Assembly: GCA_016290665.1 (NCBI GenBank)
Contig: JAEEUW010000004.1
Coordinates: forward strand, 1 to 46,978
Direction of reading: 5' to 3'
Source: Clostridiaceae bacterium
GTDB lineage: Bacteria > Bacillota > Clostridia > Oscillospirales > Acutalibacteraceae
DNA: 46,978 nt
Part shown: piece after piece, positions 14,175 through 46,978 of the stretch
Layout: every line of letters begins with the position of its first letter
Numbering within the stretch: position 1 is the first letter of the stretch
The notes under the pieces: generated by a model
Database searches by the model: none
Told to the model about the DNA's origin: nothing
The model's input: the letters and a program-made list of their open reading frames with translations, nothing else
Translations under genes and position numbers: made by a program

Positions 14175-14180
14175 CTGGCG

Positions 14181-21248: not shown

Positions 21249-21264
21249 TTCAATCACCGAAAAG

Positions 21265-21293: not shown

Positions 21294-21307
21294 GCATAGA
21301 AAGTTTA

Positions 21308-21341: not shown

Positions 21342-21570
21342 CCGCCGATAGGCGGTGACGGATGAGGTGGCCCTGCGCGTGACGTGTGAGGCCGTCCGGC
21401 TGAACGTTTTGCGTTTCATCGTCGCCCCGCGGGGCTGCGGTTTGGCCCGCTTCCCGTCTGCCCGCGTCACAAAAAGGAAAAATCGATTGAAAGAAAACAG
21501 GAGAAAAAAAGAGATATTCAAAGAAAACGGGAGCATCCGATTTGTATATTGAAAAACTTTCAAAAATGGG

Positions 21571-29800: not shown

Positions 29801-30633
29801 CAGCGATCAAATACACCGTGATCTGGGCTGACCGCGCCGGCGCGAACTATGTTGCGCTGAAGACCTTGACCGACGTGGACGGCGGCAGCGACGTCAGCGC
29901 CCAGGCGCCCGACCTGCCCGCTTCGACCAAGACCGCCAACGTCAACGGCCACTGGGTCGTGACCGGTTGGGACATCTCCCCGACGAACGTGACGCAGAAC
30001 CTTGTCATCCGTCCGGTGGAAGTCCAGGAAGCGCACAACTACGCCACGACGAATACGCCCGCGAGCTGCACAGAACCCGCAAAGACGACCTACACCTGTG
30101 CCTGCGGTTACAATTATTCGACCACGAGCGGCAGACCCAACGGTCATACTTGGACCGTGACCGAACGCGTGAACCCGACTGCCACAACCGACGGCTATGA
30201 GCTGCGTGAATGCTCCGTCTGCCACGTTCAGGATCGCGTTGTACTCGACAAGACCGGCATGATCAACCTGAAGGTTACCGTGAAGGATCAGAACGGCAAC
30301 CCGGTCAGCGGCGTCACTGTAAAGGTCTATGACGGCGACACCTTCATCGGCAGCGACGTTTCGAACTCCAGCGGCGTTGCGACCATCCCTGTACCCGAGG
30401 CGAAGACCTACCGAATCGTCATCGAAGGCAAGGAAGGCACCGTCACCGTTGACGCAAACGGCAGAGTGACCGGCGGCAACATTCCGACGGTGGACCGCAA
30501 TAACGGCGGCAGCCACGGCTGCGACTGCACCTGCCACAAGAGCGGCTTCTGGCCGATGATCTTCCGGTTCTTCCACAAGATCATCAAGATGATCACCGGC
30601 GAATTCCGGTGCTGCCCGGATGCCAACTATTAA
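23821..30633 (+). CDS. Giant secreted multidomain repeat protein (2,270 aa)
   Basis: The signal peptide ends near TASAAT (about 36). Residues 37-440 are Ser/Thr/Asn-rich beta sequence without recognised family. About 448-1255 holds InlB B-repeat-like units (strands ending in FDHWEV, FNGWNT, FDGWDK, FEGWAD, FRGWDK, with AxYT between). About 1260-1535 is mixed Ig-like sequence (TPPVITITS, AYDEAGNVSRKSFEI). About 1541-1830 repeats TCTExG followed by CxxC (CRTCDK, CRRCGE, CTKCGE, CSRCTE). About 1835-2080 has more InlB-like units (TFAGWKKAV twice). 2148-2222 is a carboxypeptidase-regulatory-like domain (VKDQNGNPVSGVTVKVYDG). The tail (2232-2270) is Cys-rich: CDCTCH, a helix FWPMIFRFFHKIIKMI, then RCC. 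There is no LPXTG motif. Likely a surface adhesin or matrix protein. Confidence 0.9.
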   Translation: MKKTVRTYTKRTLSVFMAALMLLTAWVFVAPTASAATAQPKHTYRFILKKTSGTGNWRGDFDGATGNATIQITAKNKNGTSTSTTINTTYNSSDWLPSGTGAGSEKTVYTSSSTEYFPTSIKVTTNINRNGSAVGGQTGYVDCYLEVLNVESNSYVRSNWGNKGFTADTNLIGSGSTSKSQTWTSSAGIPAITAVRWANVTEQSVTVPADTTTNTVTAPTAKVIDQYGVEWWENPSYAFKGASNSNATSSDTISGITIQSSTATSTQCKIDFKNAAKTWVANSTNGVPDGTTYQRYVYVTAYYNNNGTYLYGRTYGSSSDQRFPIKVTNCKYTQEYNASLPTVDADKYSTYTVSPTSYSVYYGITPTRQKAIDNKSSTKDIYPQELKAAGYEFKGFYDFTSAASAVSYATAWSNPASTYTKLGDSTKLTAEHKTTTNNSSHPWYAAWQAKNVKVTYINNDGSVLKESNYGKYNQKASYVASGTNTTDKLSSAAPANPTFVHAPGVQGTYKYKFDHWEVVSAKQFVMSSDGTQEQVDYSDLVGTPYDTAVMRGDTVFQAIYVLDTENGTYENYTITYWNGYLNNSSEYNTTYGTYNYLANGYKTVTYEPANEVEEGTYEYEFLGWAQKVPGDDNHVYFQDWDPSANEGQGGYVPVSNAQTPLSDTKVYRTTTWVAVYGRKFIDYTINFIYTDRTETPDGYSYALAQNHEQTPLHYGDSITVPVYNEDFFDYTGKVEGQANNKLGYTYKFNGWNTTPAATVTGNVTYTAQYTERAGIYHIQFVDYDETVLNPEDYDPDSYDPLDEEHTAPQGIGWFKYGDDITAAEAAARALLTGKTYRDDEFEYTFDGWDKTVQTTAKDDAVYTAVYTRDRLYTVTYVNEGSEVATWKGVAGEYVPAFPQVETVDPDTSNPIAAPLAAPQRGRDDYAEAYTFEGWADEAYNPKTPAEVLVNKDGMSNYEMPAEDITLYAQYTCTLTDYEINFIYGRPDENNVMPDHKQSLHYGDDVEIPTDVARPDDTTYHYEFRGWDKTVSETCKGSATYTALYRKSYVYYTVMWYQPDLSSEQQTMTVGGEPRFYYAPSTEKVRDDETYIYNNLISAPYQEPNAPPKPDAEHEYVLAGWLYKDTLGNETPTLLTRADRVTITNHMVYDNLPENRAGKIELVPLFEKAADVKTVTFLDEDGTLLGTQKVPYGTLFKDINIGTLPAKTATETDHYSLDGWLLKDEQTGLFAETILDKDTYEVEVHITVKAKFSAKPHEYELVATTTAPTFFAEGEGELLCAACNKSGTTTLPKLKDGVVPTGRIKVKDQQWLDIADDEGPVLAAGQSVFIVNTADTAAATTYYLNKHTKQTVLSLPDGANPNDYQALTYNDGGVGSQVGNIYLYASKTAVTPEDVAADDWYRCFNYTEYHQHNPDATEANFSATVGDLASAIEVADGETFIIYAKIVDRGDPANVTYISTAKLTYDGTPPVITITSTDEKETVKHCVDATVEVEEGSIFFITKNGEELSTVQRTYTEKGEYTVIAYDEAGNVSRKSFEIIGSHSPKTVVTASTCTEGGEQFDVCRTCDKVISEVSETPPLGHKLKYRVKQPTCTEDGTVTVTCRRCGEAINDLVDGYTAEDGVYTGAILAQLADPDTEDGTFERLIAVGAHTWGDWEVKTPATCMATGEKVRYCTKCGEEDSDVIPIDENAHRWSASTYSKPATCTEPGETYRICRYNEAHHQHVADIEPTGHIAADEWVETLAPTCTEPGTEVQYCKFHGLVNGEVAASTVVVNTREVAALGHDFSVFVETVPPRWDGATPVQGYDVYKCSRCTETTHLNFKDPEDNVTVTFVVNGVVGEPVETAKGSTLNTVAKPDTAKASDNTYKYTFAGWKKAVKNDEDVWVATGEVLKDTFAITENVTLIATYTESYINYCVEFLYDTGLRYKIKGYSHWNEVITVEDPTKDADVNATYTFAGWKKAVQNEDETWSATGDIVNEIICKGDATYIAVFNPTAIKYTVIWADRAGANYVALKTLTDVDGGSDVSAQAPDLPASTKTANVNGHWVVTGWDISPTNVTQNLVIRPVEVQEAHNYATTNTPASCTEPAKTTYTCACGYNYSTTSGRPNGHTWTVTERVNPTATTDGYELRECSVCHVQDRVVLDKTGMINLKVTVKDQNGNPVSGVTVKVYDGDTFIGSDVSNSSGVATIPVPEAKTYRIVIEGKEGTVTVDANGRVTGGNIPTVDRNNGGSHGCDCTCHKSGFWPMIFRFFHKIIKMITGEFRCCPDANY

Positions 30634-30643
30634 ACACAGCTTG

Positions 30644-30669
30644 AAAAAACCCGCTTCGGCGGGTTTTTT
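30644..30669 (+). terminator. Terminator of the 2,270-aa protein gene
   Basis: A perfect 11-bp stem AAAAAACCCGC with TTCG loop is followed by the T-tract, 10 nt past the stop codon. Confidence 0.93.
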
Positions 30670-30860
30670 CTTTTGCCGCGGCGGCGGGACGGCGGGTTGG
30701 GTTCGTTGCGGCGTCGGGGCGCGAACCGCCCGCCCCAAAAAGACAGATTGCAACACGCCGGAAACAAACCCGACACATTTATTGCGACGGCAAAGTCATT
30801 CTACACAAAAGGGAATCGTGCCGATTATTCAAAATGTAGAAAATGAAGAGATATTAAAAA

Positions 30861-30894
30861 AAGCATTGCATTGCTTTTTTTTTGCTGCTATAAT
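30861..30894 (+). promoter_or_regulatory. Promoter of the giant repeat gene, overlapping an A/T palindrome
   Basis: TTGCAT (30866-30871), 17 nt, TATAAT (30889-30894). The -35 box is in the loop of a palindrome of about 10 bp with A-rich and T-rich arms (AGCA, TTGCAT, TGCT centre). The leader to 31038 is about 140 nt. The rest of 30634-31037 holds the upstream terminator and otherwise featureless sequence. Confidence 0.7.
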
Positions 30895-31037: not shown

Positions 31038-34000
31038 ATGAAACTTGGAAAGAAAGCATTGAGCTGCCTGCTTGCGATTATGATGATCGTGACCAGTATT
31101 TCCGTTTGCTTCAGCGTGCTTGCGGCGGGCGACGGAACGACACAGCTCAACAACCTTGCCAATCAGATCGTCATGAACTGGGACGGTCTGAATGCGGCTG
31201 TGACTGCGTTCAACGCGAACAAGAACGAAAGCACGGCGGCTAAGGTGCCTGTTTTGAAAACAGACACCTCCCATGCGATTGTGGAGGTTGACACCTATCT
31301 TGGCGGCTGGCTTGCGGTTGCGCAGGCGTATTCTGCCTATGTGGCGGCGGTGCGCCCGACCAACACGACGCTGTCGGTCAACGGCACAACCTATGATGTG
31401 CGGACCTATGACGGCCTGTGGGGCTATGCCGTTGCGAAGATCGGCGATGCAGGCGGCCTGACGTCGGCGCAATATAACAGCGTCCTTTCCTTCTTCCGCT
31501 TTAACCAGAACGCGACCGGACAGGCGCAGGTGCCCAGCACTACAAGCTTTACGCTGGATATTGAGCCGGGCTATGACATAACGGCTTATCCCGACGTCGC
31601 CTCCATCGATCCGAGCAAGGCGTATAAGACCGGCACCATGACCTTCTCGTTCAGCGGGAACTTTATCAACGGTTCCTCGTTTACGTCTTCGACTGAAAGC
31701 TATGCGAGTGAGATCGGCGACCTGAAAACGGTTCTGGAAAGCCTTGTCAGCACGAGCGGCACCAATAACTTCAATTACTGGCTGAACACCTGGTCCAACC
31801 AGCCGCATACGAACGAAGAGTATGTGGCAATGGCAAATGAAAACGGTCAGGCTGGCTGGGTCTTCAACAGTTACTCGCTTGCGGTCAACGATTTGTCCTC
31901 CAACGCCTATTTCCCGGAAATCGCCGCCGACAGCAGCAAGGCCGAGCTCCTTTGGGACCACTTTGTTGCGCCTGTTGTGGGCAAAAGCTATGACGAAACC
32001 TACAACTGGCTGTACAGCGACCTGCGCGACTACGCGCTGCGCGGCTATGCCAACGCGCATATTGCCACGATCGACGCCCTGATGGCCGAAAACGCCAATT
32101 CCGGCAACTATGCCGGCTACCAGATGAAGGATTACTATGTCCGTCTGGCAGCGGAAAAGGAGCAGCTCGACAACCAGAGAGACTTCAACCAGGTGCTCTG
32201 CGCCGACGAAGTCAAGGCGATTATCACCTCCGGCGATCCGTTCAGGGGCGCGAACTATCTCAACGAGTTCGAAGCGCTGGTTGCGGCCGTGAAGGTCAAG
32301 GTGGCGAAGTATTACGCTGCGGAATACGGCGACAACTTCGATTTGCTGCTCAACTACCGTGTGCCGGCCTATAACCACTCCATCGACACCGAAGCTACGG
32401 CCTGGGAAGCCAACGATTACTTCCCGGCGGACGCGGGCATGGAGGGCGTGAGCTACGCCAAGATCATCGGCGCGCAGAATTCGGCGAGCAACGTGGTGGA
32501 ACAGCTGACCACGGAAGACATCACCTATGTCATCGACCCGGATACCGGCGAGGTTTCGGGCTCCGCGGGCACCGACGGGAAGACCCTTGCCGCGAAGTTC
32601 GTGCGGGAAGCCACGATCCTGATCGCCCTCATTGACACCAACATTCTGCTCTACGGTACGTTTGACGACATTTCGGCCAGCGTTTCCGCCCATAACCATG
32701 TCATTACCGAGGCGGACTACAACGCACTGAAAGCCAAGCTCAGCGCGGCCGAGATCGAAGTCGGCGGCGCCAGTGCGTTCCGGCTGAAGGCGCAGATGGA
32801 CGATTTCATGTCCAAATATATCCTCGGCGGCAAGCGTTTCTCTGAGCTTTATGCGCTGGAAGAGGAATACCGTGCCCTCTATAATCAGGCGACAAACATC
32901 CAGGCGAGCAACCACGCCCTCTTTGAGGCGGTCTTCTCGTCCGATGAGGCGTTCGCCGCGACCTATACGGTCTATATGAACCACATCAAGGGCATGATGG
33001 CGAAGCGCGTGTATGAGCAGTATGCCCGCGTCAAGAAGTATTATGACGAAGGCGCCCCGGCCAACGCCAGCGGCAACAGCACCTATTTTGATTCCTACTG
33101 GAACTTTGAAGCGATTCTGAATCTTTGGGATAACATCGACCTTGCGAACCCGACGTCACTGTTCAACGCGCTGGCAACTGTGCCGGCCTATGACCCGACC
33201 ACGGAAGAAGCTGTGGCGGAAGGGCTGCCGACCGTTGCGCAGATTCAGAACCTTTACAACCTGATCACGAACACCACCAACGGTTATGTCAAGGTTGCAA
33301 CCGATTATAAGAACGCTCTGGCGGCGCTGCGCAACAGCCTGATCAGCGGCACTGACTACAGCATCATGACCGGCATTCTGACGCAGAACGGCGGCAGCGG
33401 CAAATACGGCTGGGTCTCCTCCATCGGCAGACTGAGCGTGACGGACATCTATAACTTCGTCAAAGAGATCGGTCTGACCTCCTACAGCAACCTGACGGAG
33501 CCCAACATCCGCGACCTGATGGACGGCTCGATCTCCGATTTCGACGACATCCTTGTTTCCGAGGATATCGGCACCTTGCTCGACAACCTGATTTCGGTGG
33601 ATGTAACCGACGATCAGGGCAATCCCGTCATCGACCCCGCCACCGGCGAGCCGCAGAAGACGGGCTTCCTCGGCGTGTGGCAGTATGACTATACCGAGGT
33701 CAACGGCACCTATCACAAGGGCCGCTTCTATACCCCGACGTCCGGCAACAACGCCGGCAAGATGGTGGAGCGCACCGGAGACGCCGGTACGTCCAACGGT
33801 CCCGACAAGGTCAAGAACCTGCGTGAATTCCTGATCAACACGATCCGCAACCTGCTGTTCAACGGCAACCTGCAGACCACGCTGTTCAAGACCATTTACC
33901 CGATGATCGGCAACCTGCTGCAGGATCCCGGTACCTATTCGGACTTCGCGAACGAAGGCGGCGTCCCGGGCAAGATGAAGATTTACGACGTTTGGGTATC

Positions 34001-37000
34001 GAGCGCGTATGCCTATCTGGATAAGCTGGTTCCGTCCGTTGTGGCGGCGGCAATTCCCGCCGAGCCGCATCACTTCTTCTGGCATTCCGGTCACGGCAAC
34101 CAGGATAACAACACCGGCCAGCAGATCGGTAAGGATATTGTCTGGTATAAATTCTTTAACTCGAGTCTTTATACCTCGGCCACGAGCGGTTACTCCTATA
34201 ACAAGTATTATTACAATGACTTTTTGAAGATTTTTGACACGTATACAGAAACCTTGCCGAACGTTGTCGGTTTGAACGGTAGCGGCATTTCGATTACGCT
34301 GGACTACTACAAATCCTATTGGAACAGCACGCAGTCCGATCGCAAGATTGATTGGGAAGCGATTGACAGCCGCAAGGTCTGGCATATCACCGACCCGGAC
34401 GGTCTGTACCACACTCTCGCGACTGTGTTCTGCGGTTTGGCTGCCCCGCTGGCGGCTCTGGTCAAAGGCTCTTCCATTCAGCTGGATTTGACAGTGGGTT
34501 CTGTTCTCTATGGTCAGGCCACGGTGAACCCGGGTTCCTCCGACGCGCTGTATGAGCGCCTGTTCGTGCCGCTGTATGAACTGCTCGGCATCACATCCCG
34601 AGCGAGCGGCAACGCGAACGGCTACCACAGCATAGATGATATTAATAGTGCAACCGAGTTTGTTTGGGTTCCGAAGAACAGCAACGGCGACCAGCGCACA
34701 AAGTCCATGCAGGGTTACGGCGTCACATTCTGGCAGTATCTGCTGGAGCCGATCACCTACTGGATGGAGAACACCCTCTTCGTCAAGCCGGTGGAAACGA
34801 TCCTGAACCTCCTGCCGAACCTGCTGGGCGCGATCGAATACGACCAGCTCGTCAAGAAGCTGAACAACCTTAAAATCGCATTGTCTTTGGATTCGTTCCA
34901 TTTCCACATCATTACAAGTAGCGGTATTCCCATCAACCTTAACAGAGAGTTGACCACCTTCGACGTCGGCAACATCCTTTCGACGAACGCTACGGTCGCC
35001 CCGATTCTGAATGCGGTTGAAAACGGTGTAAACGGCAACGGCATCATGTCGATGCTGCTGAAGGCGGAGGCAACCACCCAGGCGCCGGATGACAATGCGG
35101 CGGAAGACGCCGCCAACAACCCGAAGACCTACCTGATGACGGTCTATAAGGATCCGGAGACCGGTGAAAACACAGTCGGCACTTCTGCGAATGACGCCGT
35201 GAAATATACCTCGACAAACGGCACGGCCTTCTACTTCCGACAAAAAGGCTTGCTGACGCAGACGCTGTATAATTTGTTCACCACCAAGGAGGAGACGCGG
35301 GCCATCGACGACGCGACCTACCGCATCACCACCAACAAGGCGCAGAACGGCAAGATCCAGAAAGAAGAAGGCGGCACGATAAACAAGGGCTACACCTGGG
35401 ATAAGGGCTACCTGTTCATCAACTGGCTGACCGATCTGACGGTGCACACGACCAAGCACAGCGTGCAGCCTGTGAACGGCAGAACCTACACGATGAATTA
35501 TGACATCCCGGTCAACCGCTTCATGGCGCCTGCAACGATCCGCAACGGCGGCACCTATGACGGCCATGTTATCAGCTACAGCTTCCCCGGCAACAAGGCG
35601 ACCATCCGCGGCTACCACCTGGTCGTTGACCCGGGCGATACGCTGCTGACGCTCTTCCGCTGGATCATGGATGACAACACCATCTACTTCCTGAAGCCGC
35701 TGCTTGACGGCCTCATGGAGCCCGATCCGGAGACCGGAAAGACCATCCTTGACACCATCATCCCGATTCTGGACGGTCAGGCGGATTACATCATGGCGAT
35801 CCTGATCCTCCTGCTTAACGAATACAATATCGGTTTTGACAACTACACAGACCAGGTGGCAAACGGCACCTTCTATGCGAAGGGCACCACCAATACCCTG
35901 ATCGACCATTACAGCGGCTCCGGCTCGAGCCGCAAGGCCTACGGTTTCGCGAGCGAGGCGGCCTTCCTCGGCGCCTATCTTGTGGAAAGCACCGGCCCCG
36001 ACAACGCGGGCGAGCTGGGTCTGACCGGCCTTGCCAAGGCGGACCGCGCCGTGAAGAACGCGGATAAGATCCTCGATTCCCTTGTGCCGATGCTGGTGAA
36101 GCTGCTTGCGGAAACCATCACCAAGCTGCTTCCGTTCACCGAGGATATCGTGGAAAAGGTCAACAATGACGAAATCACCCATTTGGGCGACGTGGTGGCG
36201 CAGATCGTGCTCAACGACGACTTCATGACCTGGGTCATGCAGCTGCTGTTCGGCACAGGCACCAACACAACGGCGATGGGCGCAGTGGCCGAAGGCGGCG
36301 TTGACAAGGGCATCCTCGGCGGTCTTCTGAGCGGCGACAGCGGCCCGATGATCGGCAAGATCCTCAACATCCTTGCGCAGTTCGACCTGGATATCACCCC
36401 GCTGAACCTGCTGAGCGTTTCGGCAAGCGGCACCTTCGCAAGCACGGGCGTCCACAACTGGCTGGTTGCCAACGGCACCATCACCAAAGACACCACCTGG
36501 GCTGACATCTCCGTCCCGGCGGGCATCGACTGGTTCCAGGGCGACGACGCGATTGCCGCCACCGGCACCATGTATCAGAAATATAACACGCTGTTCACAC
36601 AGCTCAAGAAGATGCTTGAATGTGTGCTGGCGCCGCTGAGCCCGGTTTTGAACCTGCTTCTCACCGGCGAAGACCTGACGCTGGCCGACAAGCTGACCAT
36701 CCGTGGCAACGAAGGCTTCGGCGAAGCGATCGTGCCGATTCTGGAAGCGCTTGACATCGACCTCGGCATGAACCAGACGCAGTTCACCAACTATGTTTAC
36801 GGCGTGTCCAACGGCCAGGTCCCGGCTCCGGCCTCCGGCAACCACTTTGCCACGAGCGTCCGCAGCCCGCTGGAACCGCTGCTTGCGGCAATTCAGGAAC
36901 TGCTGCTCGGCACCTCCAGCAACAGCGACTGCCTGCTTGCAACACCGATCTACACGCTGTTCACCAAGCTCCCGAACGCGCTGTACTTCCTTGACCGTTA

Positions 37001-40000
37001 TGACACCGACGGCGACCAGAAGGATGATACCTCCAACTTCATCCTTGCGATCACGAACCTGATCCAGCCGATCCTGACCCTGCTCGACATCGCGGATCCG
37101 ATCCTGTCGCGCGTCACAACCCTGAATATCAAGAAGACCCTGAACGAGTTCCTTGACCTTGAAGGCTTGCTCAACAAGGTGCTTTCGCAGCTGCTTGACC
37201 GCAACTGGTCCAGCCTGTCTGAGATTGAAAAAGAAAACGCCAACGCCAACTATGTTTCGATCGATCTGTTCGACTTCGGCGAAATTGCCGCGAAGTCTTC
37301 GAGCGAGATCCAGATCAACGCCACAACGCGCCGCACCGTGCCCGCCATCGGCCGTCCGGCCACCGGCACAAACTCGGTGGGAGCCAACGCCCTTGACTAC
37401 AGCAAATTCATCGGCTCGCCGGGCCAGCTGTTCATCTCGCTGCTGCGCTCGATCCTGACGCCGGAGCTGGTTGCGCGTATAGGCGATCTGATTAAGGATC
37501 TGATGGCAGCGGAAGGTCTGGAGGATACCGAATCCGCCGCTTCCCGTGCCCGTAACCTGAAGATCGTTGACAACATTGTCGCCCTGCTGAACAGCCCGGG
37601 CGAAAGCGGCGCCATGAAGGTCGATATCCTGACGGGTATTCTGATCGACCTGCTGACCGACTATGAGTCCGACGATCCCTACGATTACTTCTATGAGTTC
37701 ATGAACCGCGCGGGCGACACCCTGCAGCAGGAGAAGTGGAACGAGTATTTCATCGAAAGCAACACCTATGACTGGGAACATGTTGCGGTAGATGACAACG
37801 GCGACAAGATCTTCACCAAGCAGGAAGTCGAAGACGCGATCTCCAACCTCGACTACGTCATTCAGAAAGCCCTGCCCGACATCCTTGACGCGCTCTATGA
37901 AGAAGGCATGATCGACCTCGGCACGGTCTCGCTGGTGTATGATTACACAAGCGGCTCCGGTCTGTGGGAGCTGGTCAAGGCCCTCATCACCGAAAACCTG
38001 CTCAAGGACGACATGGTCAGCATGATTGCCAACGCGCTGTTCGGCCTGCTCGGCGGCGCCAGTAACACGATCGACGTTGTGATGAGCCTGCTCAAGGGTG
38101 CAGGGATCAACCTTACCGCTTCCGACTTCTACGGCAAGACGGCCGGTCTGGACTCCTATCTGAGCTACGGCTTTGACAAGCAGAACGGCGCGATCAAGTT
38201 TGCGCCCGGTTCCAACAACAGAAAAGCCTATATCAACGACGAAGAAGTGGACTTCGACTGGCAGCAGATCATCGAAAACCACCAGAAGGATGCCGACGGC
38301 AACATCAACTGGGCCTATGAGACCTATGAGAAGCACAGCGACTTCCTGGTGCCTGGTCCGGACAACAAGCCTGTCAAGCTGACCGAAAAGACCAAGGACG
38401 AAGACGGCAACGAAATCGACAAGACGGTCTATAACGAAGAGACCGAAGAATTCGAAATCGTCTATGCCAAGAACCTTATCGCCTCGCAGTATCCGCAAGT
38501 GAAGGAAGACGGCAAGTACGTCTATGAATACAAGAACGCGGACGGCGAAATCGTGGAATACAAGTCCGAATACAACTTCCTGAAGGCCTTCATCATCATG
38601 AAGGACGAAGATGGCAACGAGGTCGGCGACCCGATCATCTGCCCGACGGAAGAACAGATCGAAACCGGCAACCAGTATAAGCTGACCGCAAAGCGCAACA
38701 CGGACCTTGCCGTCGCCCTGTGGAGCTGGGGCCTGGATGCCGTGACCGGCGAAACCAGCGCCGAAAAGTATATCGGCAAGAAGAACAAGTTCCTGGAAGA
38801 CGTCTGGCAGATCATCTCCCCGCTGGAAGGCGTGCTGAGAATGCTGTTTGCCGACGAAGGCTTCCAGGCGTTCGGCGACGCGCTGAACCTCGAAGGCGCC
38901 AACGGCTATGAGAATGTGTTCATTCCGCTGTTCAACGCCCTCGGTCTGGATCAGATTCTGACCTACATTAATACGCATCCGGCGGACGCCTCCAATCCGT
39001 CCGGCGAAACGATGCTGCAGTACATCAACCGTGTGTCCGGCAGAACCGGCGACGAGGCGATCAAAAACGCCCTGATGTCCTCTGAAGACTATCAGAAGCT
39101 GCTGAACGGCCAGACGACTTACAACGGCGAAAGCGGCATGGGCGCTTGCATCAAGTACATTGCGAACGACGTGCTCGGCTTTATCGAGATCGTAACGACC
39201 TTCCCGATCGCGACGCTGACTCAGGCGCTGCCGACCCTTGCCTACTTCATTTATGGCGACGGTCTGACCACGCTGGCCGAAAATCTGCTGATCCCGATCA
39301 CCACGCTGACCAACCGTATCAGCCAGATCGGTCTGCCGCTCGACCTGAACAAGATCGCCGCAGGCTTGATCGACATGCTGGCCACCGGTTCCTGGGAGGA
39401 CTTCCAGACCGCGCTCGGCGCTTACATCAAGCTGGAAGAGTATGAAGAGGAAGATCCCGTAACCCACGAAATGGTTTCGAAGATCCGCATTGTGGAAGGC
39501 GAAAGCTACAACAACACCGAACTGAACTTTACCAACTCCCTGCTGCGTTATCTCAGCTCGCTTGAGTTTGACCTGACCTCGCTGCTTGCGCCGAAGGACA
39601 CGACGGTCACTGATAAGACACCGTATCAGCACAGCCTGGTGTTCTTCCTCAACAGAGTCGCGGAAACCGCCGCCAAGACGAAGCTTGCCGAGGCAGCCCA
39701 GCTGCTCGAGCACGAAGAAGGCCAGAACGTCAGCGACGAGGCCAGGGCGCAGGCTGCTGCCCTGACCGCGGAAGCGCGTGAAATCCGCAAGGATGCGCTG
39801 CGTGAGTTCATCAAGAGCATTGCCGCCATCGGCGACTCCTATGCTGATCTTGGCCAAACTGCGCCGATTTCCGAAATCACAGCAAGAGATCCCGAAACAA
39901 ATGAACTGCTGTTCACCGGCAACGTGAACGATCTGGTCAAGATCGACAACAAGGGCCAGGTCACCGTCAGCAAGTCCGAAGTGCTGATGTTCCTTGTGAG

Positions 40001-43000
40001 TTTCATCAAGCAGAACACCACGCTGATGGAAATGATCGGCAACATTCTCGGTTACGATCTGACCGACGAGCACACCGATGACGACGAAGTCCTCGACGAA
40101 GTCCTGACCAACGTCTTCAACAATCCGGAAGCGCTGGTCGACCTGGTCGTTGACCTGCTCACCGGTTACAAGGTGAAGGACGGCAAAGACGTCATTCTTG
40201 CCGACATCGAAAGCGAAACCCACTACGAATTCTATGAAGACGCCGGTTACAGCACGCTGGAAGAAGTGCTTGCCGAAAACAAGCGCGTGACCGAAGCGGC
40301 GGAAGCAGCCGGCACGGAAGTCAACAAGGACGACCTCGTTTCCGAGATCTCCCGCGTCAAGACCTCCGCAGCCATCGACAACCTTGACAATCTGGTCGGC
40401 ACGATCCTTAACCTGTTCAAGGATAAGTTGCTTGCAGTGGATGATCCGGCAACAGAAGAAGACGAAACCGGCCTTCTGACGAAGCTAGGCTTGGCGCCCA
40501 ACGACGATCTGACCCTGAAGAGCATCGTCAGCAAGCTGATCACCTCGAAGCTGCTGTCTGACGACATGCTCAACGATCTGGTCTCCATGCTGATCAACAC
40601 GCTCGGCACCGGCAGCTCCACGAACATCATCAACGTGATCGTGAAGGTGCTTGACGGCGCCGGCTACTCCTTCACACCGCAAACCGTGAAGGGCAACGTC
40701 AGCCAGCTGAGCAGCATCATCGGCAGCCACAAGAAGTGGAACGAAGTTGCGGCAGACAACCTCGAATTTGTCTATGAATATGTCACCGGCACCAACGACG
40801 ACGGTGAAGAGACCACCGCAAAGGTTTACAGCAAGACCCAGCTGATTCCCGAAGGAGAGGATACCGCAACGGTACTGATCGACCTTGCCACCGGCAAGAT
40901 CACGACGGATGAAACCGTTGGTACCGAAAAGGAAATCAGACCTGTCTGGGTCGAGGAGCAGAAGAAGACCGGCGAAGGCAACAACACGCGTTACTGGTAC
41001 ACCTATAAGACCGACAACAACGCGGAGCCCACCCCGGTTGATCTTCCGGATGCCGGCGAGACCAAGATTACAGTGAACGGCGTGGAATACAATCTGTCCC
41101 CGCTGATGGTTCCGACCGACGAACAGCAGAAGACCGTGCGTATCCATGTGGAGTGGGGTCTGACCGGCCTTACCGACGCGAAGCAAGGTCTTGACAAACT
41201 GGTTAACCTTGTCTGGAGCCTGATCAAGCCGCTGCACGGTGTGTTTGAACTGCTCTTCACGGGCAACCACCTGAAGATTTATGATAAGATCAAGATCGAA
41301 GGTCTGGAAGGCTATCAGACCGTGATTCTCCCGCTGCTGAAGGCGCTTGCCATCGACAAGCTCTTCAAGGCAGATCCGACGAAGGTTCATACGGACTCCA
41401 GCGAGCTCTATCTCGCGGGCGGTCTGGTCACGCCGGAAACCTTCATGAAGACCATCTATGGCGATGACAAGGTGGAGGAAAACGACCAGACTCACGTCTG
41501 GCAACTGAAGGCGGACGCTGACGTCAGCGGCGTGAACGTTGACAACTATAAGACCATTCTCACAACACTGGTCGATTCCCTCTGGGCACTGGTTGAATCG
41601 CTGTGCGATCGTCCGGTCAACACGCTGCTGATTATCCTGCCGCATCTGGCGCGCTTCCTGATCAGCGACGGCGCCGACAAGATCATTGAAAACCTGCTTG
41701 CTCCCGTGACGACCATCACCGATAAGATCAAGGTAATCTATGATCTCGATATCATGGGTATGCTGAAAGAGCTGCTGCAAGGCATCATCGCAAAGGATGA
41801 AGCGGCAGAAGGAGGCTCTGAAGGCGGCTCGCAAACGAGCGGTGCGCCGAGACGCAGAGGCGCTGCCGCGCCCAAGACCAGATCGGCAGGCGCGATGTTC
41901 GCGCAGTATCTGCTCGATGTGATTGAAGAGGCCGAGACGCCCGAAAGAACAGACAACAGCGAGCTCCTTGCTGAAATCTTTGAGCCGCTGATTGAAGAAG
42001 AACCCGCAGCCGCGGCGGCGCCGAAGTCTGCGCCGCGCAGAAACGGCAACCGCAACGACGCCGAACCCGACAATGAACTCTCGATCCTTGACATTCTGCA
42101 GCAACTGATCGACAGCGTTTCCATCACGATCAGCAAGGATGAAGAGACCGGCGTGGAAACCAAACTCGTTCTGAGCGAGATCCTGCCCGATACCATCTTC
42201 ATCGACCTTGCTTCTTGCGCATGGCTGGAAGCGCACCACAGCATGAAGGAATATGCGGAATTCACAGAGATCGAAACCCTCACCAGAGGCGAAGGCGAGA
42301 ATCAGATCACGATTCTGAACAGACGCGACGGCAGAATGCAGCGTACAGAAGCGGGCGACTATGACGTCGACCGTGAAACGGTTCTGCTCAAAGTCCTCGA
42401 CTGGGTCGTCTTCAACGACGGCATCCGCAGTCTGGCAGAAAATCTGCTGAAGATCAACTACGAGAAGCTCGGCGCCGGTAAGGAACTTGGTGAAAGCTTC
42501 AACCTTGACGACCCGAATACCGACTATCTGATGGCGGTTCTGATCTACTCGATCTTCAACGACGCGGAACCGGTCGAACGCCTACTGATCGACCTGCTCT
42601 CCTGGTATAAGATCGAATATCAGCCGGCAAGAGTCGCAAGCGAATATCCGGAACTCGAAGCGAGAATCGCAGAAGAACGTGGCATCGACTATGAGGGTGC
42701 CGGAATCAACAAGGACGAACTGGAAGTCCTGCCGTCGCAGATCGATACGCTGGTTGCCGGCCTCCTGCCGTTTGTGACCAGCCTGCTGCCCGCAGATATG
42801 CTCGGCGGCATTACCCTGAGCGGCAACAACGCGCAGGAACTGGTTGAAAACCTGCTGGTCGGCCTGATGAAGGACAGCACTGTCGACGGCGAGTTCAAGC
42901 CAGGCCTTGCCACGAAGCTGGTCGCCCTGCTTGTCAACGCGATCGGCGGCAACGAGACCATCACCAAGGTCATCGGCATGCTGCCTGAGATCGTGGACGG

Positions 43001-46000
43001 CCTTGACCTGACGCTGAAACACTTCATGGACAGCTCCGAAGCGTTCAATACCTTCTTCGCGCCGTACGACGTGGACAACGACGGCAAGGTCACCTGGGCG
43101 GAAGCCTATGAAGGCCTCAAGACGATCAAGATCTATGAGGATACCACGATCCGCGAAGCCGGCGACGACGAAAAGGCAACGACTTCCGACGACGGCAACA
43201 CCATCACCATCACCGACAAGAGCGATGCGACGAAGGTCCACTACGTGATCACCATCTCCGGCACCGAAAACGACAAGACCGTTTTGACGGTGGACGGCGA
43301 AGGCGAATTCGTCAGCAAGACCCGCACGGTGAAGGCAGACGGCATCGGCTGGCTGTACACCTATGACAAGGACGACGAGATTACCGGCTGTACGGCGTAT
43401 GATCTGGAAACCAACGAGATCTTCAAGACCGAAAAAGACGGTAATACCGAGATCTACAAGATCGTCTATGAACAGATGGTTGACGCAGAGAACGAGCCGA
43501 TGTTCGACGACGAAAACAACCCGATCTATGACACGACCAAGCCGGTCTATGTCTATGAGATCAACCTGACCGGCACGAACAGCTTCGGCATCAACACCTA
43601 TGACGACGTTCTTACGCTGATCAGCCAGATCCTGACGCCGCTGGTACCGGTGCTCCGCATGCTGCTCACCGAAGAAGATCTGATCATCCTCGACGGTGTT
43701 CATATCACGGGCGGCGACGGTTATGACAGATTCATCGTTCCGGTCTTTGAAGCGCTCGGTATCGACGGATTTGAGATTAAAATTTCGGAAACCGAAACGA
43801 AAACAATCAGGATCCTTGACAAGGTTGCGTTCAAGGCGCTTGACGACACTGCTTATGCGAAGCAGATCCTTGACTATGTGGACGCGCTCATCAAGAAGAT
43901 CGTGGGCTCTCCGGTCCAAACGATTGTCGGCGCGCTGCCGCAGCTGGTCTGGTTTGTCTACAGTGACGGCCTTGCCCAGGGCGTTGAACAGTTCGTGGCT
44001 CCGCTGATTACGCTGGTTGACCTGGTCAACGACGTGACCGGCGCAAAGGTGACCATTCCAGATGCCAGCGTGAACACGCAAGGCACGAAGGAATATGTTG
44101 CGCTTGACATCTATGCGATCATTCTCGGCTTCATCAAGAGCAACGAAACGATGAAGAAACTGATCCCGAACATTGACAATATCACAAATGTTTATGAGCT
44201 GGTCGACAACCTGCTGACATGCGATGCGATTGAACATCTGCTGGCGAACCTGCTGACCGAAAAGAACATCAGCCTTGGCGAGATCCCGGTGATCGGTCTC
44301 TTCGAGTACATCATCGTGAAGACCTGCCATATTGATGATGTTGAAACGGTCCGCTATTATCAGGCGACCATCGACGGCGAACGACGCACCGTGAAGGGCG
44401 TTGTGTCCACCATGGCCGACACGCTGATGGCGATTGTGGGCGACACGATCCTTGGCGGCGACCTGGTCGAAAGCCTGATTGAACAGATCAGCGGAGAAGA
44501 AGTCAGCGACACCGTGAAGCAGATCCTTGACGCGATCACGGGCGAAAACAGATACGTCATCTTCAAGATCCTCCTGAAGTACTTCAACGAGTACGATGTG
44601 GAGAATATGTTGCTTGAGTACCTGTCCTTCGAAAGACTGACCTACGACTATGACACCTTTATCGCCGGCAGCGAAGTCGGTATCGGCAACAAACAGCGCA
44701 AGGTTCGCCGCGCGATCAAGAAGCTCGACAAGACGCTTCTTGCCGCAATTCCGGAGCTGATCCCGATCCTGAAAGAGAACGACACCTTCAAGGCGATCCT
44801 GAAGACCGTGCCTGAGCGCGCTTCGCTAAAGGATGCGGTTGACGCGATCCTGCAGCAGTATGTCATCAAGGATGAGATCGTGAACACGCTGGTCAGTCTG
44901 ATCATCGGTCTGCTGGGCGAAAACGGCGATACCATCAACGGCATTGCGCCGCTGCTGAACCAGATCGTCGGCCTCGACATTGCTCCGGCTGCCTATGCTG
45001 CAGAAAGCTCCGGCGCGTTCCAGACCTTCCTGAACAACCGTATTGACGCCGCGCTCGAAAACAACCCGACGAAGATCGATGACGAAGGAAACGAAGCTTC
45101 CCGTGAGCGCGCTGACGTCACTTGGTCCGAGATTGTGTTCCCGACCGATTATGCACCGCACTTCGCCTATGTGACCTATGAATTCGCAAAGGACGAAGAC
45201 GGCAAGGTCATCCTTGACACAAACGGCAACCCGACCTATAAGCTGGTCGACGGCAACAAAGTCGTTGTGAAGGACAAAAACGGCAACATCATCTATAACG
45301 ACTATTACACCAAGAGTGCGGAAGAGATGGGCCTCAAGAAGGCAGACGTTGAGGTTGACACCTACACCGTTACAGTCGATCTGATCCCGGTCATCCGTTA
45401 TCAGTACACGGTTGGTACGGGCAGCGACGCCAAGACTGAGACCGTCTACAAGCCGGAAGGCACGACGACGATCACGGTCAAGGACGGCGACGACGAAGTC
45501 GAATACAGCCTGACCCAGGTTTCGCACTACACCTACACCATCGGCACCGGCAACGACGCTGAGATCTTCGATTACTACGGCCCGGCCGGTGAAACGACCT
45601 ACACGATCGAAACAGGAGACAACGCCGGCACCTACACGCTGGAGGTGGCTGACGAAACAGTTCAGGATAAGAAGGTCCAGCTCGACGAAGTCTGGGGTGT
45701 TGATTCCGCTGCGAATATGGACGCGAAGAAGGATGCGTTCGTCAATGCGATCTATGGCCTTGTGAAGCCGCTTGAACTGGTACTCAACTTCCTGCTCAGA
45801 GGCGAAGATATCCAGATCCTGAAGGCAGAAGGCGCCGAAAAGGGCGTTCTGGAACTGAAGGGCAACACCGGCTACGAGCACGCGATCCTGCCGTTGCTGA
45901 AGGCGCTCGCGATCGATCCGGAATACCTGACAAGTGCTGATGATTACATGAGCGGCAAGGGCACGGCTGTGACGCTGAGCGCGCTGACCGACGCGATCTA

Positions 46001-46978
46001 CGGTCTGGTCGAACAGCTTGCAAACGGCCCGGTTCAGTACCTGCTGACCCTGCTTCCGACCCTGTCCTACTTCCTAGCCTCCAACGGCGTGGAAGTGGTC
46101 GTACGCAATCTGCTCGCGCCCGCGCTTGCGCTCGTGAATATTGCGGAACCGATCCTTGGACCGATCCTTGAAAAGGTCATTAACGAAAACGCCAGCATCT
46201 ATGAGATCCTTGAAAAGTATCTGCCCACCACCGCGGGCAAGAAGGATCCGGCAACTGGCACGTTCATCCTGAACAGCAACGGCAAGAAGATCTACACGCT
46301 GAATGATATTCTCGGCATCGCAGGCGAAGACGGCTCCAACATCGTCCGCATCCTGAACGAGCTGCTGTCCGGTCTCATCGTGAAGGCGGTTGAAGGCGAC
46401 GAAACCACCGTAGTCTGTGATCCGCTGCCGAGCGACTTCTTCTGGCAGTATGTCCAGCATACCGTCAACATTCCGGCAAAGCAGACCGGTGACAAGGTCT
46501 ACTACTGGGTCGGCGAAGACAACGTCAAGATCGCTGAAAGCGTCTACAACATGGGTCACAACGAAGAGATCAACGAGACCCGCTATGTTATCCGCGACGG
46601 CATCTTTACGGTCGACATTGCAGACTCCCTGGTCTTCCTGCTCGATACGGTCCTGTCGAACGACGTACTTTCGGATATCAACCTGATCCTTGACAAGAAG
46701 GTCGAATCCGACGATACGAAGGAACTGATCGGCGGTATTCTTGAAACCATCATCAACGGTGAAAACAACGGCCTGAAGCTGACTGATATCATTACAAAGC
46801 TGTTTGAAGGCTATGAGATCACCTATGTGGAGCTCAACGGCAAACTCATTGAGCCGGATCACTCCGCGTATGATAATCTTGACGCGAACCTGCAGTCGCA
46901 GGTTGAAGAGATTCCGGGCAAGCTTGACACTGTGATCAGCGAAGCAGTCAAGACGCTGCTGCCGGTTCTGCCGACGCT
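31038..46978 (+). CDS. Giant secreted modular protein, 3' end outside window (>5,300 codons)
   Basis: The frame is open from ATG 31038 (site AAGGAGG upstream) to the window end, 5,313 codons without stop. The signal peptide is KKALSCLLAIMMIVTSISV, then CFSVLAA (about 5-30). Residues 31-1000 are mainly helical, Tyr/Asn/Ala-rich, with no known family. From about residue 1130 the protein repeats a module in the fixed order A-W-B-C, at least five times. A is a Leu-rich helix pair (as in MVSMIANALFGLLGG). W has a D-x-TW-x-E motif plus beta strands. B is PLxxVLxxLLxGEDLxI, then G-Y-x-x-x-I-x-PLLxALxID. C is LPxLxYFxxSDG then NLLAP. Single EF-hand-like loops occur (DVDNDGKVTWAE). I do not recognise the module. 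Likely an extracellular or wall-associated fibre; function unknown. Confidence 0.92.
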   Translation, partial: MKLGKKALSCLLAIMMIVTSISVCFSVLAAGDGTTQLNNLANQIVMNWDGLNAAVTAFNANKNESTAAKVPVLKTDTSHAIVEVDTYLGGWLAVAQAYSAYVAAVRPTNTTLSVNGTTYDVRTYDGLWGYAVAKIGDAGGLTSAQYNSVLSFFRFNQNATGQAQVPSTTSFTLDIEPGYDITAYPDVASIDPSKAYKTGTMTFSFSGNFINGSSFTSSTESYASEIGDLKTVLESLVSTSGTNNFNYWLNTWSNQPHTNEEYVAMANENGQAGWVFNSYSLAVNDLSSNAYFPEIAADSSKAELLWDHFVAPVVGKSYDETYNWLYSDLRDYALRGYANAHIATIDALMAENANSGNYAGYQMKDYYVRLAAEKEQLDNQRDFNQVLCADEVKAIITSGDPFRGANYLNEFEALVAAVKVKVAKYYAAEYGDNFDLLLNYRVPAYNHSIDTEATAWEANDYFPADAGMEGVSYAKIIGAQNSASNVVEQLTTEDITYVIDPDTGEVSGSAGTDGKTLAAKFVREATILIALIDTNILLYGTFDDISASVSAHNHVITEADYNALKAKLSAAEIEVGGASAFRLKAQMDDFMSKYILGGKRFSELYALEEEYRALYNQATNIQASNHALFEAVFSSDEAFAATYTVYMNHIKGMMAKRVYEQYARVKKYYDEGAPANASGNSTYFDSYWNFEAILNLWDNIDLANPTSLFNALATVPAYDPTTEEAVAEGLPTVAQIQNLYNLITNTTNGYVKVATDYKNALAALRNSLISGTDYSIMTGILTQNGGSGKYGWVSSIGRLSVTDIYNFVKEIGLTSYSNLTEPNIRDLMDGSISDFDDILVSEDIGTLLDNLISVDVTDDQGNPVIDPATGEPQKTGFLGVWQYDYTEVNGTYHKGRFYTPTSGNNAGKMVERTGDAGTSNGPDKVKNLREFLINTIRNLLFNGNLQTTLFKTIYPMIGNLLQDPGTYSDFANEGGVPGKMKIYDVWVSSAYAYLDKLVPSVVAAAIPAEPHHFFWHSGHGNQDNNTGQQIGKDIVWYKFFNSSLYTSATSGYSYNKYYYNDFLKIFDTYTETLPNVVGLNGSGISITLDYYKSYWNSTQSDRKIDWEAIDSRKVWHITDPDGLYHTLATVFCGLAAPLAALVKGSSIQLDLTVGSVLYGQATVNPGSSDALYERLFVPLYELLGITSRASGNANGYHSIDDINSATEFVWVPKNSNGDQRTKSMQGYGVTFWQYLLEPITYWMENTLFVKPVETILNLLPNLLGAIEYDQLVKKLNNLKIALSLDSFHFHIITSSGIPINLNRELTTFDVGNILSTNATVAPILNAVENGVNGNGIMSMLLKAEATTQAPDDNAAEDAANNPKTYLMTVYKDPETGENTVGTSANDAVKYTSTNGTAFYFRQKGLLTQTLYNLFTTKEETRAIDDATYRITTNKAQNGKIQKEEGGTINKGYTWDKGYLFINWLTDLTVHTTKHSVQPVNGRTYTMNYDIPVNRFMAPATIRNGGTYDGHVISYSFPGNKATIRGYHLVVDPGDTLLTLFRWIMDDNTIYFLKPLLDGLMEPDPETGKTILDTIIPILDGQADYIMAILILLLNEYNIGFDNYTDQVANGTFYAKGTTNTLIDHYSGSGSSRKAYGFASEAAFLGAYLVESTGPDNAGELGLTGLAKADRAVKNADKILDSLVPMLVKLLAETITKLLPFTEDIVEKVNNDEITHLGDVVAQIVLNDDFMTWVMQLLFGTGTNTTAMGAVAEGGVDKGILGGLLSGDSGPMIGKILNILAQFDLDITPLNLLSVSASGTFASTGVHNWLVANGTITKDTTWADISVPAGIDWFQGDDAIAATGTMYQKYNTLFTQLKKMLECVLAPLSPVLNLLLTGEDLTLADKLTIRGNEGFGEAIVPILEALDIDLGMNQTQFTNYVYGVSNGQVPAPASGNHFATSVRSPLEPLLAAIQELLLGTSSNSDCLLATPIYTLFTKLPNALYFLDRYDTDGDQKDDTSNFILAITNLIQPILTLLDIADPILSRVTTLNIKKTLNEFLDLEGLLNKVLSQLLDRNWSSLSEIEKENANANYVSIDLFDFGEIAAKSSSEIQINATTRRTVPAIGRPATGTNSVGANALDYSKFIGSPGQLFISLLRSILTPELVARIGDLIKDLMAAEGLEDTESAASRARNLKIVDNIVALLNSPGESGAMKVDILTGILIDLLTDYESDDPYDYFYEFMNRAGDTLQQEKWNEYFIESNTYDWEHVAVDDNGDKIFTKQEVEDAISNLDYVIQKALPDILDALYEEGMIDLGTVSLVYDYTSGSGLWELVKALITENLLKDDMVSMIANALFGLLGGASNTIDVVMSLLKGAGINLTASDFYGKTAGLDSYLSYGFDKQNGAIKFAPGSNNRKAYINDEEVDFDWQQIIENHQKDADGNINWAYETYEKHSDFLVPGPDNKPVKLTEKTKDEDGNEIDKTVYNEETEEFEIVYAKNLIASQYPQVKEDGKYVYEYKNADGEIVEYKSEYNFLKAFIIMKDEDGNEVGDPIICPTEEQIETGNQYKLTAKRNTDLAVALWSWGLDAVTGETSAEKYIGKKNKFLEDVWQIISPLEGVLRMLFADEGFQAFGDALNLEGANGYENVFIPLFNALGLDQILTYINTHPADASNPSGETMLQYINRVSGRTGDEAIKNALMSSEDYQKLLNGQTTYNGESGMGACIKYIANDVLGFIEIVTTFPIATLTQALPTLAYFIYGDGLTTLAENLLIPITTLTNRISQIGLPLDLNKIAAGLIDMLATGSWEDFQTALGAYIKLEEYEEEDPVTHEMVSKIRIVEGESYNNTELNFTNSLLRYLSSLEFDLTSLLAPKDTTVTDKTPYQHSLVFFLNRVAETAAKTKLAEAAQLLEHEEGQNVSDEARAQAAALTAEAREIRKDALREFIKSIAAIGDSYADLGQTAPISEITARDPETNELLFTGNVNDLVKIDNKGQVTVSKSEVLMFLVSFIKQNTTLMEMIGNILGYDLTDEHTDDDEVLDEVLTNVFNNPEALVDLVVDLLTGYKVKDGKDVILADIESETHYEFYEDAGYSTLEEVLAENKRVTEAAEAAGTEVNKDDLVSEISRVKTSAAIDNLDNLVGTILNLFKDKLLAVDDPATEEDETGLLTKLGLAPNDDLTLKSIVSKLITSKLLSDDMLNDLVSMLINTLGTGSSTNIINVIVKVLDGAGYSFTPQTVKGNVSQLSSIIGSHKKWNEVAADNLEFVYEYVTGTNDDGEETTAKVYSKTQLIPEGEDTATVLIDLATGKITTDETVGTEKEIRPVWVEEQKKTGEGNNTRYWYTYKTDNNAEPTPVDLPDAGETKITVNGVEYNLSPLMVPTDEQQKTVRIHVEWGLTGLTDAKQGLDKLVNLVWSLIKPLHGVFELLFTGNHLKIYDKIKIEGLEGYQTVILPLLKALAIDKLFKADPTKVHTDSSELYLAGGLVTPETFMKTIYGDDKVEENDQTHVWQLKADADVSGVNVDNYKTILTTLVDSLWALVESLCDRPVNTLLIILPHLARFLISDGADKIIENLLAPVTTITDKIKVIYDLDIMGMLKELLQGIIAKDEAAEGGSEGGSQTSGAPRRRGAAAPKTRSAGAMFAQYLLDVIEEAETPERTDNSELLAEIFEPLIEEEPAAAAAPKSAPRRNGNRNDAEPDNELSILDILQQLIDSVSITISKDEETGVETKLVLSEILPDTIFIDLASCAWLEAHHSMKEYAEFTEIETLTRGEGENQITILNRRDGRMQRTEAGDYDVDRETVLLKVLDWVVFNDGIRSLAENLLKINYEKLGAGKELGESFNLDDPNTDYLMAVLIYSIFNDAEPVERLLIDLLSWYKIEYQPARVASEYPELEARIAEERGIDYEGAGINKDELEVLPSQIDTLVAGLLPFVTSLLPADMLGGITLSGNNAQELVENLLVGLMKDSTVDGEFKPGLATKLVALLVNAIGGNETITKVIGMLPEIVDGLDLTLKHFMDSSEAFNTFFAPYDVDNDGKVTWAEAYEGLKTIKIYEDTTIREAGDDEKATTSDDGNTITITDKSDATKVHYVITISGTENDKTVLTVDGEGEFVSKTRTVKADGIGWLYTYDKDDEITGCTAYDLETNEIFKTEKDGNTEIYKIVYEQMVDAENEPMFDDENNPIYDTTKPVYVYEINLTGTNSFGINTYDDVLTLISQILTPLVPVLRMLLTEEDLIILDGVHITGGDGYDRFIVPVFEALGIDGFEIKISETETKTIRILDKVAFKALDDTAYAKQILDYVDALIKKIVGSPVQTIVGALPQLVWFVYSDGLAQGVEQFVAPLITLVDLVNDVTGAKVTIPDASVNTQGTKEYVALDIYAIILGFIKSNETMKKLIPNIDNITNVYELVDNLLTCDAIEHLLANLLTEKNISLGEIPVIGLFEYIIVKTCHIDDVETVRYYQATIDGERRTVKGVVSTMADTLMAIVGDTILGGDLVESLIEQISGEEVSDTVKQILDAITGENRYVIFKILLKYFNEYDVENMLLEYLSFERLTYDYDTFIAGSEVGIGNKQRKVRRAIKKLDKTLLAAIPELIPILKENDTFKAILKTVPERASLKDAVDAILQQYVIKDEIVNTLVSLIIGLLGENGDTINGIAPLLNQIVGLDIAPAAYAAESSGAFQTFLNNRIDAALENNPTKIDDEGNEASRERADVTWSEIVFPTDYAPHFAYVTYEFAKDEDGKVILDTNGNPTYKLVDGNKVVVKDKNGNIIYNDYYTKSAEEMGLKKADVEVDTYTVTVDLIPVIRYQYTVGTGSDAKTETVYKPEGTTTITVKDGDDEVEYSLTQVSHYTYTIGTGNDAEIFDYYGPAGETTYTIETGDNAGTYTLEVADETVQDKKVQLDEVWGVDSAANMDAKKDAFVNAIYGLVKPLELVLNFLLRGEDIQILKAEGAEKGVLELKGNTGYEHAILPLLKALAIDPEYLTSADDYMSGKGTAVTLSALTDAIYGLVEQLANGPVQYLLTLLPTLSYFLASNGVEVVVRNLLAPALALVNIAEPILGPILEKVINENASIYEILEKYLPTTAGKKDPATGTFILNSNGKKIYTLNDILGIAGEDGSNIVRILNELLSGLIVKAVEGDETTVVCDPLPSDFFWQYVQHTVNIPAKQTGDKVYYWVGEDNVKIAESVYNMGHNEEINETRYVIRDGIFTVDIADSLVFLLDTVLSNDVLSDINLILDKKVESDDTKELIGGILETIINGENNGLKLTDIITKLFEGYEITYVELNGKLIEPDHSAYDNLDANLQSQVEEIPGKLDTVISEAVKTLLPVLPT
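36216..46200 (+). repeat. Coding tandem modules A-W-B-C of the giant protein (five copies)
   Basis: Approximate starts of A/W/B/C: 36216/36495/36601/36957; 38004/38255/38802/39217; 40560/40736/41210/41625; 42840/43095/43618/43923; 44871/45120/45751/46044. B-to-B distances are 2.1-2.4 kb. A degenerate B (LFVPLYELLGI) at about 34432-34600 may mark an earlier copy. Protein similarity is clear in core motifs but the DNA is diverged, so the copies are old. Confidence 0.8.

What the first reader, a model, noticed from the sequence alone, without database searches (positions are those of the whole stretch)
31038..46978. Giant secreted protein built from an unrecognised repeated A-W-B-C module
One frame stays open for 5,313 codons after a clear signal peptide. 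Five modules of about 710-800 residues share the same internal order: Leu-rich helix pair, TWxE/beta segment, PLxxVLxxLLxGEDL...GYxxxIxPLLxALxID, and LPxLxYFxxSDG...NLLAP. I know no named family with these signatures. Highly helical, Leu-rich giant modules are unlike the usual Ig-like or InlB-like surface repeats next door.
Basis: partly seen in the sequence, partly recalled or inferred. Interest (0 to 1): 0.82.

Follow-up and report, generated by a model that had tools for sequence, protein, structure and literature searches.

The report
Giant secreted repeat protein, new module
Rumen bacteria of the Ruminococcaceae carry a very large secreted protein built from 13 to 18 copies of a helical module that matches no family we could search, and a two-copy version of the module is encoded beside its own membrane ATP-driven machine, which gives a first handle on what the giants might do.

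Summary
The frame is open for 5,313 codons and is cut only by the contig end. Eight fetched relatives carry the whole gene: 8,971-11,576 residues, 13-18 modules. Selection is purifying. Pfam, NCBIfam, PHROGs, PDB sequences and PDB folds gave no convincing match. The module occurs in 37 of 250 sampled genomes of one family and hardly outside it.

The best functional clue lies outside the window. The smallest form (signal peptide, two modules, C-terminal membrane helix), present in the window's own genome too, is co-encoded with a MacB-like ABC ATPase-permease: 13 of 14 copies of that ABC clade are adjacent to it; the last is cut by its contig. The giants themselves are not beside this ABC.

I propose that the module is an extracytoplasmic partner domain of a type VII ABC machine and the giants are fixed-order, surface-held arrays of it. 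Partnership is inferred; the ligand is unknown; an adhesive or structural role is nearly as likely.

The parts
31038..46978 (+). giant ORF, 5,313 codons, open at the contig end
31024..31030 (+). AAGGAGG ribosome-binding site 7 nt before the ATG
   Evidence: read by eye
31038..31127 (+). signal peptide (residues about 1-30), similar in 8 fetched full-length relatives
   Evidence: hydropathy; cleavage site not predicted with a dedicated tool
31128..34397 (+). N-terminal region without a clear module
34398..34886 (+). B-C unit 1 (degenerate, profile match ends before the C end)
36597..37112 (+). B-C unit 2
38784..39344 (+). B-C unit 3
41193..41750 (+). B-C unit 4
43602..44048 (+). B-C unit 5
45732..46163 (+). 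B-C unit 6
44685..46175 (+). A-W-B-C block of the AlphaFold model (10-residue pLDDT means mostly 62-92, lower at both ends): helices, beta insert, helices
   Evidence: model residues 362-858 of window:43602-46178
30643..30670 (+). hairpin with T run, probable terminator between the upstream gene and the giant
   Evidence: -19 kcal/mol, z -5.0; not called by the pattern scan
23821..30633 (+). neighbouring 2,270-aa secreted InlB/Ig-like protein with an amphipathic C-terminal tail; syntenic in relatives

Best explanation
The gene encodes a secreted, surface-held chain of 13-18 diverged copies of a helical module (A-W-B-C-D). The module's basic role, seen in its smallest form, is to be the extracytoplasmic partner of a MacB-like (type VII) ABC ATPase-permease: a two-module protein held in the membrane by a C-terminal helix, made from the gene directly upstream of the ABC gene. 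ATP-driven movement of the ABC's large external domain would act on the modules, or pass hydrophobic or peptide ligands to them. The giants would be fixed-order arrays of the same kind of module, kept at the envelope by a conserved basic, aromatic amphipathic C-terminal helix and reaching out through the wall. Shown: the repeats, the family, the two-module form and its predicted membrane helix, the pairing with one ABC clade, the conserved tail. Inferred: physical partnership, ligand handling, envelope retention by the tail, and that the giants do the same job as the short form.
For: Eight fetched full-length relatives, 8,971-11,576 aa, 13-18 B-C units at E below 1e-10. Two-module forms of 826-1,073 aa read in 14 genomes: 14 of 14 have an N-terminal hydrophobic and a C-terminal membrane segment and two module regions by profile. 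In 12 of these 14 the next gene on the same strand encodes the ABC (Pfam ABC_tran + FtsX in the 3 scanned, the others by similarity); gaps -14 to +11 nt in 10, 21 and 62 nt in 2. Control: the ABC's external domain was searched in the same 250 genomes: 14 copies in 13 genomes score 434-1049 bits, the next best 268; all 13 genomes are among the 37 module-positive ones. 13 of the 14 copies are adjacent to a two-module gene, one of them to its end fragment (G478, profile E 2e-33); the 14th starts at its contig end. 17 of 17 lower-scoring ABC loci examined (of 98 further genomes with a match) hold no module ORF at E 0.01 in the fetched stretch and no such neighbour. The 12 paired ABCs in the tree form one clade against the 17, support 100/100. 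Topology by hydropathy: one membrane segment, about 480 external residues, then three or more. Type VII ABCs act outside the membrane through partner proteins (PMC12646458, PMC5985334; passages). Tail: 8 of 8 full-length giants by eye. Module positions 1, 2, 3, 5 and 6 are single clades across five sequences and position 4 needs two changes: an old array whose first part keeps its order.
Against: 24 of the 37 module-positive genomes lack the ABC clade, and 2 of 14 two-module genes (G434, G516) have no ABC beside them, so the module can work without it. None of the eight giants' loci, the mid-size loci fetched, four left-out short or broken loci, or the window holds this ABC. The pairing may be one ancestral event inherited in 6 genera. 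Positions 7-12 of the giants are not single clades, as module number differs. Several genomes of the genus show only weak matches and no giant frame (e.g. G032, 97% complete), so the giant is not universal. The tail count is biased because loci were chosen around module genes. No ligand or pocket is shown; model confidence is moderate (mean pLDDT 66 and 64) and D is poorly predicted.
Confidence: 0.4

Rival explanations
1. The giants are structural or adhesive surface fibres (attachment to feed particles, neighbours or host), unrelated in job to the ABC-linked form; the module is just a stable helical spacer.
For: Among huge bacterial proteins the major clusters are peptide/polyketide synthases, then attachment or recognition surface proteins (PMC11573180, passages); giant surface proteins occur in Apilactobacillus kunkeei (PMC12863079, abstract start). 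The syntenic neighbour is an InlB/Ig-like secreted protein. Copy number and size vary widely in the family. The giants are not beside the ABC.
Against: Repeats are about 20-30% identical and the first six positions are conserved between species, unlike homogenised adhesin repeats (recalled). No adhesion domain, LPXTG-like, SLH or dockerin match found in what was scanned.
Confidence: 0.34
2. The modules bind and neutralise membrane-active peptides or other hydrophobic toxins; the ABC-linked pair is a detoxification module and the giant a multivalent sponge.
For: MacB-type systems of Gram-positives protect against peptides (PMC5985334, passages). A MarR-type gene (Pfam in the one scanned; three homologues by similarity) precedes the pair in the 4 loci of the window's genus. 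Leu-rich amphipathic helices.
Against: No ligand evidence; the MarR gene is seen in only 4 of the 10 ABC-paired loci; no regulator or transporter was found conserved beside the giant.
Confidence: 0.15
3. The frame is an artefact: a spurious open frame in a high-G+C, codon-biased genome or an assembly chimera.
For: Long antisense ORFs overlap it; the contig is cut.
Against: Signal peptide, tail, module order and uninterrupted frames in 8 of 8 fetched full-length relatives; dN/dS 0.31-0.46.
Confidence: 0.02

Closest known systems
MacB / type VII ABC systems with an extracytoplasmic partner (MacAB-TolC, FtsEX-EnvC, LolCDE-LolA, YbbAP-TesA, YknXYZ)
   Same: The ABC beside the two-module form has an ABC ATPase domain and an FtsX domain in one chain, and a large external domain after its first membrane segment, with a co-encoded external protein.
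   Different: That external protein matches no Pfam or NCBIfam family; it is membrane-anchored at the C-terminus and built of a module that also forms giants. Physical partnership is not shown.
Giant bacterial surface proteins (e.g. Giant1-5 of Apilactobacillus kunkeei, 3,000-8,000 aa)
   Same: Extracellular, thousands of residues (PMC12863079, abstract start seen).
   Different: Here Leu-rich helical modules and 9,000-11,600 aa; I did not compare the sequences or structures with the A. kunkeei giants.
InlB-B / bacterial Ig-like surface proteins
   Same: The syntenic neighbour 23821-30633 is of this kind (weak Pfam hits below cut-off) and shares the type of C-terminal tail.
   Different: No such domain found in the window's part of the giant.

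Membership tests
type VII (MacB-like) ABC, for the protein downstream of the two-module form | ABC ATPase domain and FtsX permease domain in one chain | tested here: met
   Pfam ABC_tran and FtsX above cut-off in 3 of 3 scanned; the other paired copies by similarity only
type VII (MacB-like) ABC, for the protein downstream of the two-module form | four membrane helices, large external domain between helix 1 and 2 | tested here: met
   hydropathy of 12 proteins: 4 to 6 segments in 11, 3 in the truncated one; about 480 residues between the first and the rest
MacB equivalog | NCBIfam MacB score cut-off 966 | tested here: not met
   281 bits, best stretch residues 2-289
MacA-type adaptor, for the two-module form | HlyD/lipoyl/beta-barrel domains by Pfam | tested here: not met
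   no such family among hits at E up to 1 in 11 members; best E of any family 0.012
physical partner of the ABC | direct contact with its external domain | not testable with these tools
   no co-folding available; adjacency only
sortase (LPXTG) surface protein | LPXTG-like motif in the last 80 residues | tested here: not met
   0 of 23 proteins checked, one of them the window fragment whose true C-terminus is missing
described domain family (Pfam, NCBIfam) | match above curated cut-off | tested here: not met
   PHROGs, which has no curated cut-off, best E 0.075
known PDB fold | significant structural match | tested here: inconclusive

The most novel reading that the evidence does not exclude
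A new kind of envelope machine: a type VII ABC whose dedicated external partner module has been multiplied into megadalton secreted chains that relay ligands or force from the membrane outwards through a single-membrane envelope, a bacterial counterpart of the long lipid-transfer bridges of eukaryotes.
Probability: 0.1. Interest if true: 0.9.

Novelty: new variant of a known kind. Interest (0 to 1): 0.64.

Why it matters
In three genomes for which I computed it, this single gene takes about 1.1-1.8% of the genome and would give a product near 1-1.3 MDa (rounded genome sizes), yet I found no described domain in it. The family has a small, expressible two-module form tied to an ABC machine of a well-studied class, which turns 'giant protein of unknown function' into a testable partnership. 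It also points to a C-terminal amphipathic tail as a possible surface-retention signal.

Tried and rejected
Artefact reading rejected. Match to known domains: Pfam, NCBIfam, PHROGs, PDB sequences and profiles, Foldseek against PDB (two models) and BFVD (first model): nothing convincing; sub-threshold names such as XFP_C, AgrD and CueP are read as chance. The weak profile hits to designed helical proteins (E 0.035 and up) are read as common helical composition. G964 looked like a relative in another family (E 7.6e-4) but the match covers only the first 76 profile positions and its locus otherwise shows nothing of the module. The G795 hit has stops. G100 (another family of the order, 3.3-kb contig of a 75% complete genome) does carry the module; contamination cannot be excluded. 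An insertion common to the paired ABCs was looked for and none was printed. The promoter scan found nothing on the plus strand before the giant, two weak minus-strand sites; a TATAAT at 30889-30894 is my own reading. Rfam found only a tRNA in the window. Literature: seven searches showed no paper in their listings that I recognised as being on this family; I saw passages of PMC11573180, PMC12646458 and PMC5985334 and only listings and abstract starts of the rest. The comparison with eukaryotic lipid-transfer bridges, and the remark on adhesin repeats, are recalled, not tested.

Left out of the count of 14 two-module forms: L086, L090 and L100, cut by contig ends at their 5' side, and L093, where the frame is in two pieces; none of the four holds the ABC. 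L090 and L100 (same genus g3) also end in a membrane-like segment by eye. The genome search tallies are samples, long lists were cut in their outputs, and matches per genome were scored only up to a limit, so copy numbers are lower bounds.

Full report
Observation. The frame at 31038 is real as read: 5,313 codons, signal peptide, no stop. The window is the complete contig C58 of its draft genome, so the gene is cut by the contig end. A profile built from five of the window's B-C stretches and iterated over eight full-length relatives finds six units in the window and 13-18 at E below 1e-10 in the relatives, whose lengths are 8,971, 10,263, 11,497, 11,576, 10,378, 9,342, 9,396 and 10,263 residues. 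They are 8 of the 16 genomes for which one search listed frames above 8,000 codons. dN/dS is 0.31-0.46 among three sequences.

Distribution. With a single window module as query, 33 of 34 genomes of the genus (own included) and one of another genus match at E 0.001, 34 of 59 in all; but several of these are weak matches in smaller frames, and 16 genomes show a giant frame in that (truncated) list, so the giant is common but not universal in the genus. With the B-C profile: 37 of 250 genomes and 19 of 135 genera of the family (own genome included, one, G435, barely at E 6e-4), 3 of 295 in the order sample, two of them in the family, 2 of 299 in the phylum sample, one own and one a hit with stops. 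With the two-module profile, 2 of 341 in the class sample, one own and one false. So the module looks like an invention of one family. Frames range up to giants outside the genus too (10,516 aa in G490, 7,069 aa in G478).

The two-module form. Fourteen were read: 826-1,073 aa, N-terminal signal segment, two modules, C-terminal membrane segment in 14 of 14. The window's own genome has one (L081:8075-10663). In 12 of 14 the next gene, same strand, encodes an ABC ATPase-FtsX permease of 912-924 aa (the G378 copy, 882, runs off its contig); in the two exceptions, G434 and G516, it does not. A MarR-type gene precedes the pair in the four loci of the window's genus (G000, G016, G009, G032; similarity, Pfam for one).

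Control for the pairing. The external domain of the ABC was searched in the same 250 genomes: 111 genomes match, but 14 copies in 13 genomes stand apart (434-1049 bits, 45-100% identity) from the rest (268 bits and less). All 13 genomes are among the 37 with modules; drawing 13 of 13 from 37 of 250 has a chance of 2e-12 if genomes were independent, which they are not (6 genera). 13 of the 14 copies lie beside a two-module gene, one of them (G478) beside its end fragment (E 2e-33); the last (G378:C81) starts at its contig end. In 17 of 17 fetched loci of lower-scoring ABC homologues, from 98 further genomes with a match, no ORF matches the module profiles at E 0.01. A tree of 12 paired and 17 unpaired ABCs splits them with support 100/100. 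Against the link: 24 of 37 module-positive genomes lack this ABC clade, and it is found in none of the fetched giant, mid-size or left-out loci nor in the window.

The giants. The eight complete copies end in a basic, aromatic amphipathic stretch such as LNWFQRLIKKIKDFFAKIFSIFK. A pattern search of 347 ORFs in the fetched loci for this kind of tail gave 17 hits: 9 module proteins (6 giants, 3 mid-size), 6 copies of the InlB/Ig-like neighbour, one other ORF (L081:4466-5287) and one antisense artefact; two giants, G007 and G033, are not among the hits though their tails are alike by eye. The loci were chosen around module genes, so the ratio is biased. The neighbour is found in 8 of 9 loci, window included (7 upstream, in G033 downstream); in G014 the fetched stretch ended 387 bases past the giant. 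A strong hairpin and T run separates it from the giant in the window. In a tree of 104 B-C units, positions 1, 2, 3, 5 and 6 of five giants are each one clade, position 4 needs two changes, and positions 7-12 two or three, as module numbers differ; few columns make this tree weak in detail. The first part of the array is thus old and of fixed order.

Mechanism. Type VII ABCs couple ATP hydrolysis to work outside the membrane and are defined by their partners (PMC12646458, PMC5985334; passages). I infer that the two-module protein is such a partner and that the giant is an expanded, surface-held array of the same module. Conserved residues in the module are mostly L, P, G, D, Y, N and W, which argues for a binding or structural role more than for catalysis, without excluding it. 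A purely structural or adhesive role for the giants is nearly as likely.

Noticed in passing
window 23821-30633: 2,270-aa secreted InlB/Ig-like protein (Big_1 at E 1.5e-5, below cut-off) ending CDCTCHKSGFWPMIFRFFHKIIKMITGEFRCCPDANY; syntenic with the giant and with the same kind of amphipathic tail between cysteines.
   Followed up: partly
giants and mid-size module proteins, L081:4466-5287, L021, L026, L033, L034, L036: A basic, aromatic C-terminal amphipathic stretch recurs on unrelated secreted-looking proteins of these bacteria; possible envelope-retention signal.
   Followed up: partly
window 11258-13000: ORF with an N-terminal helix-turn-helix and a C-terminal lipase-like Lip_C domain (Pfam 2e-50), an odd fusion of a regulator-like and an enzyme-like domain.
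   Followed up: no
window 20862-21563: DUF559 / MTES_1575 endonuclease-like ORF on the minus strand.
   Followed up: no
window 1153-18302: Carbohydrate kinase, MFS sugar transporter, arabinofuranosidase, GH30 and fn3 ORFs, a likely polysaccharide-use region; a tRNA-Arg lies at 10747-10823.
   Followed up: no
W segment of window modules, e.g. 44004-46187: Nested beta repeat of about 45 residues (YTYTVGxGxDA...YGPAGETTYTI) inside some modules only; repeats within repeats.
   Followed up: partly
G490:C33 (L096, L097) and G478:C44: Open frames of 10,516 and 7,069 aa with the module in other genera: giant size is not limited to the window's genus.
   Followed up: partly
L098:18955-19998 and L146:14683-15999: A divergently oriented secreted-looking ORF (start like KARKFSHKLLALFMAIVM) sits head to head with the 2.4-2.9-kaa module genes in two genera.
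   Followed up: no
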